From assembly GCA_947501275.1 (NCBI GenBank), contig CANMVD010000004.1, positions 248,001 through 312,000 on the forward strand: a stretch of 64,000 bases of DNA. Reading direction: 5' to 3'. Made by a program: the position numbers and the translations under genes. Below, piece after piece: positions 11,641-17,282 of this stretch (positions are counted from its first letter, which is position 1; every line of letters starts with the position of its first letter). Origin of the DNA: an uncultured Tateyamaria sp. GTDB taxonomy: Bacteria; Pseudomonadota; Alphaproteobacteria; Rhodobacterales; Rhodobacteraceae. Under the pieces are notes generated by a model. The model was given only the letters and a program-made list of their open reading frames with translations. It searched no databases and was not told the DNA's origin.

Positions 11641-11690
11641 CTGACGGCCTCCCTTGCCACCTGAGTGTTGCACAGATTTTTTGGAAAAAT

Positions 11691-11709
11691 AGGTCAAATA
11701 TGCTGACCT
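11691..11709. promoter_or_regulatory. Inverted repeat upstream of the indolepyruvate oxidoreductase gene
   Basis: AGGTCA (11691-11696) and TGACCT (11704-11709) form perfect 6-bp arms with a 7-base spacer, about 50 bases upstream of the start at 11640 in a divergent promoter region. It is a candidate operator for a dimeric repressor; the regulator is unknown. Confidence 0.4.
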
Positions 11710-11856
11710 GTCAAAATATTTCCGATCACAGTTTGCTCAGGCCGGTCTGACAGTATGGAAAACCATACCCCCCTCAGAGCGAATAGAGACCGCCCCCGCC
11801 GGGTTACCCTCGTGAACCACACTTCACGATCCGCTCAAACCCACGGAGACATACAG

Positions 11857-12729
11857 ATGCCAGATACAGACCCCAAAGACGCAGATAGCAAAACCACCGG
11901 CGCCCCAAACACTGGCACTGACGACATTATGGACCTGTTTGCCGATGACCCTGAGTTTCAGGAGATCAGCGCCATGGGCAACGACAGAAAAAAGCTCCAG
12001 ATGGCAATCTACAAAAAGAACCGGGACAAGACCGCAGCGCAACTCGTAAAAACAGTCTACTACTCCAAGAGCATTTTCAGCAAAGAGTACGAGAACGATT
12101 GGATCCTTCCCGCTAACGGCGGCACCATGACCAAAACCTCATGCTTTAGTAAGCCCAAAGCACCGGGCCAATGGTACAAGACGGATTTGGCTGGGTATGG
12201 GTATCCCGGTTCGGTGCAGGGCTGGAAAATGCATGTCGGCTGCCACCCGCTGGATATGATCTCCTTTTTCGTAACTTTGGCGCCTGTGCTGAACAGGAAC
12301 AAAATTATGCACAAGTTCCTGAGCTTTGCCACGATGTACGGGCATGACGTTGGACATCAGGTCCAATACAAGCAAGGCGAAGGCAAGACCTGCGTCATTT
12401 ACCCGGATGACCCCAAACATCTGGTAGAAATCGTCAACATGGTGGACGCCGAGATTGTCCGCGCCAATGCAAAATACATGGCGGACACGTCTGGGCAGCT
12501 TGGACCCGCCTTTCGGCCCTACCCCGGCGGCGTGCCCGGCACGATGAGTGTGGGGCGCACCGGGTTTATCGGAGTGCGCTATGGTGGGTTCGTTGGCCCG
12601 TTGCCGGACAAAAGCAAGCTTTTCAACGCCCGCAAGTTCAAGGTGCAGGATGATACCAGAGGGGTGCACCCCTACCCCGACTTCATCACCACCGTTCCCT
12701 CGGAGATTTTGCAGATCAAGGGCCGCTGA
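11857..12729 (+). CDS. Stand-alone phospho-Ser/Thr lyase-like protein (LanKC/RamC N-terminal-like)
   Basis: A 290-residue soluble protein. Residues 1-45 are polar and acidic. Residues 78-245 carry, in order, ENDWILPANGG, GWKMHV (residues 122-127), MHKF (151-154), GKTCVIYPDD (176-185), a GPAFRPYPGG segment (216-225) and VRYGGF (240-245). I recall this series from the N-terminal lyase-like domain of class III lanthionine synthetases (RamC/LanKC), related to the OspF/SpvC phosphothreonine lyases. H126 and K153 fit the acid/base pair. No kinase, cyclase domain or precursor peptide is nearby. Start chosen at 11857 (GGAG before it). The fold is inferred; substrate unknown. Confidence 0.6.
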   Translation: MPDTDPKDADSKTTGAPNTGTDDIMDLFADDPEFQEISAMGNDRKKLQMAIYKKNRDKTAAQLVKTVYYSKSIFSKEYENDWILPANGGTMTKTSCFSKPKAPGQWYKTDLAGYGYPGSVQGWKMHVGCHPLDMISFFVTLAPVLNRNKIMHKFLSFATMYGHDVGHQVQYKQGEGKTCVIYPDDPKHLVEIVNMVDAEIVRANAKYMADTSGQLGPAFRPYPGGVPGTMSVGRTGFIGVRYGGFVGPLPDKSKLFNARKFKVQDDTRGVHPYPDFITTVPSEILQIKGR

Positions 12730-12820
12730 GGCGCGCCGACCGCAGGGTCACGCGTATATTTGTTGGATTGGACGGCGGATCGAGGTTGAGGCGGACGCGC
12801 ATTCGCGTAGAGTGCGCGCG

Positions 12821-16398: not shown

Positions 16399-16797
16399 AT
16401 GGCATCACCGATCTGGACTATCACCGCAACAACCGTTGCGCTGGTTTTCACCGCCCCTCTCGCGATGGCTGAGCTGACAGTTGCTGACCGTCAGACCATC
16501 TCTACCCAGAATGGCCTGCGTGTTGTGTCTTCTGACGGCGCCGTCATAGGGCTGACGGACGGCGTGTCGTTTCAAAAGGATCGCACACGTCTCTACCTGC
16601 TTGCCCGCGGCGGGTCGATTTTCAGGATTGGTGGCGGCGGCAAGGACATCGTCGTGACAACCTATACCGACACGCTCAGCTTGCGCGGGTCTGATATTGT
16701 TCTGAATGCAGACAAGCAACGCGTGCGCAACAAAGCCAACGGATCCTTCACCGATGACAGCGCCCCGTTCGAAATCCTGTTGTTGGATCGGCGTTAA
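16399..16797 (+). CDS. Small secreted protein, PRC-barrel-like, paralogue 1
   Basis: A 132-residue protein with a signal peptide (cut near AMAEL) and a single beta-rich domain. The segment VVSSDGAVIGLTDG resembles a PRC-barrel repeat. It is clearly homologous to the next gene, sharing the ELT start of the mature protein, the SSDG..IGL block, a G-K-D-(I/V)-V block and a terminal RR. AAAAGGA precedes the start. The function is unknown; probably a periplasmic protein. The tandem arrangement suggests local duplication. Confidence 0.75.
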   Translation: MASPIWTITATTVALVFTAPLAMAELTVADRQTISTQNGLRVVSSDGAVIGLTDGVSFQKDRTRLYLLARGGSIFRIGGGGKDIVVTTYTDTLSLRGSDIVLNADKQRVRNKANGSFTDDSAPFEILLLDRR

Positions 16798-16889
16798 ACC
16801 GCCGATCGCGCGCAGGGCAATGTATGCGCATCCGACTAAAATTCCGACCCAAGGGGTTAACCGTTCATAGCAACCCGAAAGGACTTACC

Positions 16890-17282
16890 ATGTCACGAAC
16901 CCCATCCCTCCTCAAATCCGCAATGCTTGCTCTGCTTCTGGCAATCCCCGCCACCCAAGGCAGCGCAGAACTGACCAGCGCAGAATCGCTGCAGGTCGAA
17001 AAACTGCGCGGCGTGCAGGTCCTGTCGTCCGATGGCGGCATCGTCGGTCTGATTGAAGGCGCCTCCATCAGCCCATCCCGCGCAGCGCTGTTCCTGCGCT
17101 CGGCCAACGGATCGTTCCTGCGCTATCGCGGAAAGGATGTCGTTATTCTGACCCAAGCCAGCGAGATCAGCCTGCAAGGCAACAGCGTTGTTCTGAACTC
17201 GACCAGCCAGCGGATCAAGACGCGCGCCACCAAGTTCAAGGCCGACGACGATATGATCGAAATCAACCTGCCGCGCCGTTAA
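16890..17282 (+). CDS. Small secreted protein, PRC-barrel-like, paralogue 2
   Basis: A 130-residue paralogue of the gene before it. It has a signal peptide (cut near GSAEL), then VLSSDGGIVGLIEG and GKDVVILTQ and an ending of NLPRR. The ATG at 16890 follows AAAGGA at good distance and gives the same N-terminal layout as its neighbour; the longer open frame adds an unlikely basic leader. The two copies differ along their whole length, so the duplication is old. The function is unknown. Confidence 0.75.
   Translation: MSRTPSLLKSAMLALLLAIPATQGSAELTSAESLQVEKLRGVQVLSSDGGIVGLIEGASISPSRAALFLRSANGSFLRYRGKDVVILTQASEISLQGNSVVLNSTSQRIKTRATKFKADDDMIEINLPRR

What the first reader, a model, noticed from the sequence alone, without database searches (positions are those of the whole stretch)
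11857..12729. Orphan LanKC/OspF-like phospho-Ser/Thr lyase in a roseobacter
The ordered motifs GWKMHV, MHKF, GKTCVIYPDD, GPAFRPYPGG and VRYGGF match my recollection of the lyase-like N-terminal domain of class III lanthipeptide synthetases, itself related to type III effector phosphothreonine lyases. In known cases a kinase and cyclase are fused or adjacent. Here there is neither, nor any evident precursor peptide. It could be a stand-alone modifier of phosphoproteins, a piece of a split RiPP pathway, or a domain with a new function.
Basis: partly seen in the sequence, partly recalled or inferred. Interest (0 to 1): 0.68.

Follow-up and report, generated by a model that had tools for sequence, protein, structure and literature searches.

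The report
Lone LanKC-type phosphoprotein lyase gene
A marine bacterium carries, as a single gene with no obvious partners, an enzyme domain best known as one part of large peptide-antibiotic factories; its active site looks intact, so it probably strips phosphate irreversibly from some protein, and which protein that is can be tested.

Summary
Window 11857-12729 (+) encodes a 290-residue protein ending in a LanKC/RamC-type phospho-Ser/Thr lyase domain: Pfam RamC_N, E 1.4e-10, over cut-off. The predicted fold matches the ThurKC lyase domain (Z 15.0) and OspF/SpvC/VirA (Z about 10), also when LanKC sequences are kept out of the alignment. Six site residues (K124, H126, K153, K177, Y182, R241) are invariant in 35 of 35 aligned rows. 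The genome has no LanC match and no kinase was found beside the gene, so it is not a lanthipeptide synthetase. 2 of 20 genus genomes carry it, both between iorAB and lysR, where the other 18 have 165-187 bp. The carriers are not sisters; the gene looks to be under purifying selection. Stand-alone relatives (Caulobacter, Paracaedibacteraceae, Competibacteraceae and others) fall apart from fused LanKC in a tree with long branches. Most likely it beta-eliminates phosphate from a phosphoprotein; activity and substrate are untested. The two carriers alone in the genus share one T6SS lineage with a PpkA-like kinase: a two-genome, after-the-fact lead.

The parts
11857..12729 (+). stand-alone LanKC/RamC-type phospho-Ser/Thr lyase gene, 290 aa plus stop
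11857..12156 (+). N-terminal extension (residues 1-100): polar start, helices of low confidence, 62% identical between the two genus copies against 80% for residues 101-290; no family match
12226..12234 (+). K124 and H126 (GWKMHV); K124 aligns with ThurKC K65, and the motif with SpvC K104/H106
   Evidence: SpvC/VenL residue pairs from PMC2843593 passages
12313..12315 (+). K153, invariant; taken here as the catalytic base (counterpart of SpvC K136), an assignment by inference
   Evidence: PMC2843593 aligned SpvC K136 with another VenL residue (R83), see the Against line
12385..12402 (+). K177 (ThurKC K117) to Y182
12577..12579 (+). R241 (ThurKC R163, counterpart of a phosphate-binding SpvC arginine)
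12658..12660 (+). R268 (ThurKC R191); R in 25 of 35 rows
11845..11849 (+). GGAGA, likely ribosome binding site, also present in the orthologue
11810..11829 (.). inverted repeat TCGTGAA-N6-TTCACGA upstream of the start, kept with one change in its arms in the other carrier; possible operator or hairpin
11641..12820 (.). 1180-bp interval between the start codons of iorAB and lysR that holds the gene; in 18 of 20 genus genomes it is 165-187 bp and has no match to the gene

Best explanation
It is a stand-alone phospho-Ser/Thr lyase of the LanKC/RamC type. A lysine (K153 most likely) would take the alpha proton of a phosphothreonine or phosphoserine, H126 would protonate the leaving phosphate, and K124, K177, R241 and R268 would hold the phosphate and backbone, leaving dehydrobutyrine or dehydroalanine: an irreversible removal of phosphate. 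It works in trans on a protein phosphorylated by some other kinase, not on a lanthipeptide precursor. Shown here: homology, predicted fold, conserved site, lone gene, no LanC match in the genome, low dN/dS. Inferred: activity, which lysine is the base, cytoplasmic site (no signal peptide seen by eye), kind of substrate.
For: RamC_N over cut-off. Foldseek: 11 rows at E up to 0.001, all LanKC; the first 14 rows are LanKC, then OspF, VirA, SpvC and HopA1 at E 0.02-0.3 with prob 0.54-0.99. VIA: ThurKC Z 15.0, rmsd 2.9, 173 residues; OspF/SpvC/VirA 9.9-10.8. Model built without LanKC sequences: ThurKC Z 12.0, OspF/SpvC/VirA 8.5-9.1, best unrelated row 6.7. Six site residues invariant in 35 of 35 rows. 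No LANC_like match in the genome; neighbours of ordinary kinds; one-gene insertion at a constant site; dN/dS about 0.1. The five stand-alone loci whose surroundings I looked at (G056, G371, Caulobacter, two Competibacteraceae) share no neighbour that I could see.
Against: No activity was tested, and I saw no assay of a member of this branch in print. R268 is R in 25 of 35 rows only. The base assignment is unsure: PMC2843593 (passages) aligned SpvC K136 with VenL R83, three residues on from the position that the invariant lysine would have; that later work favours the lysine is recall. The weak relatives P0006 and P0007, left out of the 35 rows, differ: P0007 has Q for K153, R for K177 and neither Y182 nor R241, so the wider family may hold non-enzymes. 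An APH-type kinase gene lies beside P0006 and P0007 and about 4.9 kb from the Caulobacter gene, so not every relative is far from a kinase.
Confidence: 0.72

Rival explanations
1. It is an effector exported by a secretion system (T6SS the likeliest here) that eliminates phosphate from phosphoproteins of a neighbouring or eukaryotic cell, as OspF and SpvC do through the type III system.
For: OspF/SpvC fold. The two carriers share one T6SS lineage (TssK 93% identical) while the other 13 TssK copies of the genus are 26-34% identical to it. Two related stand-alone proteins, 62% identical to each other, one of them from a Paracaedibacteraceae MAG, begin with what looks by eye like a signal peptide; a Paracaedibacter-like bacterium is known as an endosymbiont of a protist (title of PMC8163844 in the listing).
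Against: Gene and T6SS are on different contigs (C4, C13); no VgrG or PAAR gene among the neighbours checked; no signal peptide by eye; the association rests on two genomes and was noticed after the hits were seen; T6SS presence as such is not associated (13 of 20).
Confidence: 0.2
2. It is the lyase of a split RiPP (peptide) pathway whose kinase and precursor lie elsewhere in the genome.
For: Class V lanthipeptide clusters have separate kinase (PF01636, APH type) and lyase proteins (PMC10604976 passages). The domain is nearest to LanKC. APH-type genes lie beside two weak relatives and about 4.9 kb from the Caulobacter gene.
Against: No LANC_like match in the genome; one-gene insertion, no evident precursor ORF of 20 aa or more in it; no transporter or protease among the neighbours checked. 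Cyclases of other kinds and APH genes elsewhere in the genome were not searched for.
Confidence: 0.09
3. It binds phosphoproteins without catalysis, or does another reaction on the same fold.
For: eIF4E shares the fold without the activity (PMC4159009 passages), and eIF4E structures appear in the list. One weak relative has lost site residues.
Against: All six site residues kept in 35 of 35 rows, in an alignment whose mean column identity is 17%.
Confidence: 0.08

Closest known systems
N-terminal lyase domain of class III/IV lanthipeptide synthetases (LanKC/RamC, LanL/VenL; ThurKC structures 8sam, 8sao, 8sap)
   Same: Pfam RamC_N; fold, Z 15.0; counterparts of ThurKC K65, K117, R163 and R191 all present
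   Different: no kinase domain, no cyclase domain, no LanC match in the genome; 100-residue N-terminal extension; H152 before K153 in 8 of 9 stand-alone rows, where 25 of 26 LanKC rows have F and one W
OspF/SpvC/VirA type III phosphothreonine lyases (Pfam PF03536)
   Same: fold, Z about 10; K and H of the GWKxH motif as in SpvC (PMC2843593 passages); one catalytic domain acting in trans (inferred here)
   Different: no PF03536 match at E up to 1; no type III gene among the neighbours checked; a Tateyamaria-type marine bacterium
HopA1 effectors and HopA1-type LanY of class V lanthipeptides (LxmY) (PF17914)
   Same: lyase as a separate protein; weaker fold match, Z 6.1-8.3
   Different: no PF17914 match at E up to 1; no LanK-like partner beside it
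BLES03-like proteins (predicted phosphothreonine lyases, PMC4159009)
   Same: predicted stand-alone lyases outside known synthetases
   Different: another sequence family; not compared directly here

Membership tests
RamC_N / LanKC-type lyase domain | profile match over Pfam's cut-off | tested here: met
   41.4 bits, cut-off 27; profile positions 20-114 of 191
RamC_N / LanKC-type lyase domain | site residues K124, H126, K153, K177, Y182, R241 | tested here: met
   35 of 35 rows; two weak relatives left out of the rows
RamC_N / LanKC-type lyase domain | fold | tested here: met
   predicted models
Class III/IV lanthipeptide synthetase | lyase, kinase and LanC-like cyclase on one chain | tested here: not met
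   290 aa with RamC_N alone; NCBIfam LanKC 30.1 bits, cut-off 575
Class III/IV lanthipeptide synthetase | LanC-like cyclase in the genome | tested here: not met
   0 matches of PF05147
OspF/SpvC phosphothreonine lyase family | PF03536 sequence match | tested here: not met
   no match at E up to 1
OspF/SpvC phosphothreonine lyase family | fold | tested here: met
   Z 9.9-10.8 over 150-161 residues; Foldseek E only 0.02-0.2
OspF/SpvC phosphothreonine lyase family | secretion through a type III system into host cells | not tested
   no type III search was run
HopA1/LanY | PF17914 sequence match | tested here: not met
   no match at E up to 1
HopA1/LanY | fold | tested here: inconclusive
   Z 6.1-8.3, rmsd 3.4-4.4
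phosphothreonine/serine lyase (enzyme activity) | beta-elimination of phosphate | not testable with these tools
   needs an assay
known anti-phage defence proteins | PADLOC model match | tested here: not met
   0 families at E up to 0.1

The most novel reading that the evidence does not exclude
A branch of stand-alone LanKC-type lyases carries out irreversible phosphate elimination on bacterial phosphoproteins as part of ordinary signalling; in Tateyamaria it is tied to a T6SS with a PpkA-like kinase, either as a one-way off-switch of that phosphorylation pathway or as cargo. The LanKC lyase domain would then be one offshoot of an older family of free phosphoprotein lyases.
Probability: 0.12. 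Interest if true: 0.82.

Novelty: new variant of a known kind. Interest (0 to 1): 0.5.

Why it matters
Phosphate beta-elimination in bacteria is known to me from injected effectors and from peptide-antibiotic synthesis. A free LanKC-type lyase in a marine bacterium without a LanC match would be a third use: editing of proteins in or by that bacterium, leaving dehydroamino acids that ordinary phosphoproteomics does not look for. It also bears on how LanKC/LanL was assembled: the proposal that LanL arose from stand-alone kinases, lyases and cyclases (abstract of PMC2843593) would have living candidates to test. The genus has one and the same site with and without the gene, so deletion and complementation are simple to design.

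Tried and rejected
Mobile carriers: no relative found in viral contigs, phages or plasmids. PADLOC: none for four proteins, P0001 among them. PHROGs: only E 0.023 on 11 residues, taken as chance. phmmer of the single protein against the PDB: poliovirus receptor rows at E 0.96-1.7, then the synthetase-sized chain 9wj0 at E 1.8; nothing significant.

Regulon of the inverted repeat: in five genus genomes the pattern with up to 2 mismatches gave 10 matches against 4 for the control; the two without mismatch are those upstream of this gene in G000 and G014. The other 8 are too few above the control to claim a regulon. In the window, 5 matches with up to 3 mismatches against 5.9 expected.

T6SS presence as such is not associated: 13 of 20 genus genomes have TssK, both carriers among them; Ser/Thr kinases over the cut-off in 14 of 20. 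Only the T6SS lineage separates carriers from the rest: two of 20 against two of 20 has chance 1 in 190 for one trait named beforehand, and this one was not.

Recent transfer between the carriers: not supported, since dS of the gene (1.64) is no lower than that of ior (1.38) or lysR (1.05), all near saturation. Ancestral with many losses, or old exchange at one site: not resolved.

First rpoB tree was wrong because half of the loci were on the other strand; discarded and redone.

Rows dropped: of the 29 long loci, three (L024, L028, L031) were left out of A3 for odd starts; others were trimmed. P0006 and P0007 were left out of A3 and the tree because they are weak as proteins (26.1 and 22.3 bits, cut-off 27; the first scored 27.4 as DNA). 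Surroundings of L018 and of G059 (P0005) were not looked at beyond the ORF lists. Tree branches among stand-alone rows are long, several joins are flagged as doubtful and the root is not known.

Residue-level alignment to SpvC or OspF was not made; their counterparts come from papers.

Full report
What is there. The gene runs from ATG 11857 to 12729 on the + strand. Its protein has one Pfam match at E up to 1, RamC_N, E 1.4e-10, 41.4 bits against a cut-off of 27, over residues 105-202. The NCBIfam models of class III and IV synthetases match this part only, at 30.1 and 28.6 bits against cut-offs of 575 and 650. The rest of the domain, to about residue 289, shows in the alignment with LanKC proteins and in the model.

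Fold. AlphaFold2 with 32 aligned rows gave mean pLDDT 64 and pTM 0.60, best in residues 121-160 and 181-240 by blocks. Foldseek's first 14 rows are LanKC structures (11 rows at E up to 0.001, all LanKC); OspF, VirA, SpvC and HopA1 follow at E 0.02-0.3 with two more LanKC rows among them. VIA-align: ThurKC Z 15.0 (rmsd 2.9, 173 residues), VirA/SpvC/OspF 9.9-10.8, HopA1 8.3, LxmY 6.1-7.0, then eIF4E from 5.8 down. Since 26 of the 32 rows were LanKC, I repeated it with six stand-alone rows only: a poorer model (pLDDT 52, pTM 0.51), yet ThurKC again first (Z 12.0), OspF/SpvC/VirA 8.5-9.1, best unrelated row 6.7. A sequence profile of those six rows matched 12 distinct PDB sequences at E 2.4e-14 to 5.5e-6: chains of ThurKC, PneKC, CuvL and SalKC (names), and 9wj0/9wop, named only as protein kinase domain-containing, 871 aa; the next row had E 0.64.

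Active site. In alignment A3 (9 stand-alone rows, P0001 included, and 26 LanKC-sized rows) W106, G122, K124, H126, L145, K153, G176, K177, Y182 and R241 are invariant; R268 is R in 25 of 35. The HMMER alignment to ThurKC, matched to A3 by motif, puts ThurKC K65, H67, K94, K117, Y122, R163 and R191 opposite K124, H126, K153, K177, Y182, R241 and R268; the numbers are counted by me with an offset of 32, and K65, K117, R163 and R191 agree with PMC10604976 (passages). That paper reports no turnover for K65A and R163A. PMC2843593 (passages) gives SpvC K104 and Y158 as carbonyl hydrogen-bond donors, K136 as base and H106 as acid, and aligns them with VenL K51, Y108, R83 and H53. By spacing, the invariant lysine here would be VenL K80, not R83; I take it as the base, in part from recall of later VenL work. 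PMC4159009 (passages) found all seven SpvC site residues in LanL by structure-guided alignment. A small difference may mark the stand-alone branch: the residue before K153 is H in 8 of 9 stand-alone rows, F in 25 and W in 1 of 26 LanKC rows.

Context. Neighbours are argC, a MurI-type racemase, an acyltransferase, an indolepyruvate ferredoxin oxidoreductase-type gene (iorAB), then after the gene lysR, an MscS-type channel, two small secreted-looking paralogues without a Pfam match, and purL (gene names are mine, from domains and sequence). The genome has no LANC_like match. PF00069 kinases: one over the cut-off, one under it. The first sits in a T6SS cluster on contig C13 beside TssK (PF05936), an IcmF-type TssM and a PP2C phosphatase, hence 'PpkA-like'; TssL and TagF are named by eye.

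Distribution. Protein search: 2 of 20 genus genomes, 1 of 394 family genomes, the own one (nearly one genome a genus), 3 of 61 in a mixed set. RamC_N: 6 of 385 in the class, own included, 5 over the cut-off, and 1 of 398 in the phylum, the own one. A scan of the 84,980-species collection with two degenerate motifs gave 34 loci: five with a short stand-alone ORF (Tateyamaria; Caulobacter sp. CCUG 60055, 37% identical over 120-290; a Paracaedibacteraceae; two Competibacteraceae) and 29 with ORFs of 824 aa or more, taken as LanKC by size. That scan needs exact motif matches, so it undercounts. Three more stand-alone forms came from class genomes G056, G371 and G059, and two weak ones from G311 and G094.

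Partners in other genomes. Around the stand-alone genes of G056, G371, Caulobacter and the two Competibacteraceae I saw no shared neighbour. But an APH-type (PF01636) gene lies about 4.9 kb from the Caulobacter gene, and one beside each of the two weak relatives; class V kinases are of that family (PMC10604976 passages). This keeps a two-protein kinase-lyase pathway possible for some relatives.

The empty site. In 18 of 20 genus genomes the iorAB and lysR start codons lie 165-187 bp apart with no match to the gene; in G000 and G014 they lie 1180 and 1171 bp apart with the lyase gene between (values for loci on the other strand corrected by two bases from the printed ones). The stretch next to iorAB is alignable with the empty sites, the rest hardly; I saw no target-site repeat. 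The carriers are not sisters in a lysR+ior tree nor in an rpoB tree: well supported branches force two changes in both. The pair has 74% aa identity (lysR 91%, ior 86%), 80% in the domain and 62% in the first 100 residues; NG86 dN 0.17, dS 1.64.

Family tree. All nine stand-alone rows fall on one side of a branch (97/96; 98% of 200 bootstrap trees), with long branches, doubtful joins flagged, root unknown. The Tateyamaria pair and Caulobacter group together (100/99).

T6SS lead. TssK of G000 and G014 is 93% identical; the other 13 TssK copies (15 copies in 13 of 20 genomes) are 26-34% identical to that of G000. So lyase and this T6SS lineage occur in the same two non-sister genomes of 20. Chance is 1 in 190 for one trait named beforehand; it was not. 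[quoted passage not shown]

Print. PMC4159009 (passages) treats another stand-alone family (BLES03) and mentions lantipeptide clusters with stand-alone kinase and lyase. PMC13273362 (passages) offers the assay.

Judgement. It is a new variant of a known kind: the domain is known; its use as a lone gene in a genome without a LanC match is not described in what I could search. The mechanism by homology is strong; the biological role is open.

Noticed in passing
window 16399-17282: Two tandem small secreted-looking paralogues without a Pfam match; the corresponding place in G014 (L010 13474-14938) has three.
   Followed up: partly
L072 and L073 (G000 contig C13): T6SS cluster with a PP2C phosphatase and a Ser/Thr kinase, of a lineage shared only with G014 among the TssK copies of the genus. 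A 1949-aa ORF opposite the upstream part may be an antisense artefact.
   Followed up: partly
L004/L011 (G056, unnamed) and L018 (Paracaedibacteraceae MAG): Two stand-alone RamC_N proteins of 401 and 388 aa, 62% identical, with a signal-peptide-like start by eye; possible exported lyases.
   Followed up: partly
L008 and L009 (G311, G094): Weak RamC_N relatives beside an APH-type phosphotransferase gene in both genomes; P0007 has lost the catalytic lysine, tyrosine and arginine.
   Followed up: partly
L020 and L022: 165-aa minimal RamC_N proteins in two Competibacteraceae, GYKIHV motif, in different surroundings (acyl-CoA dehydrogenase; NADAR and HTH genes).
   Followed up: partly
L017, L033, L034, L037, L045, L026: LanKC-sized genes in five Massilia and one Hyunsoonleella, with Y instead of R at the R268 position.
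   Followed up: no
L019 3761-4924: APH-type kinase gene about 4.9 kb from the Caulobacter stand-alone lyase gene, with other genes between.
   Followed up: partly
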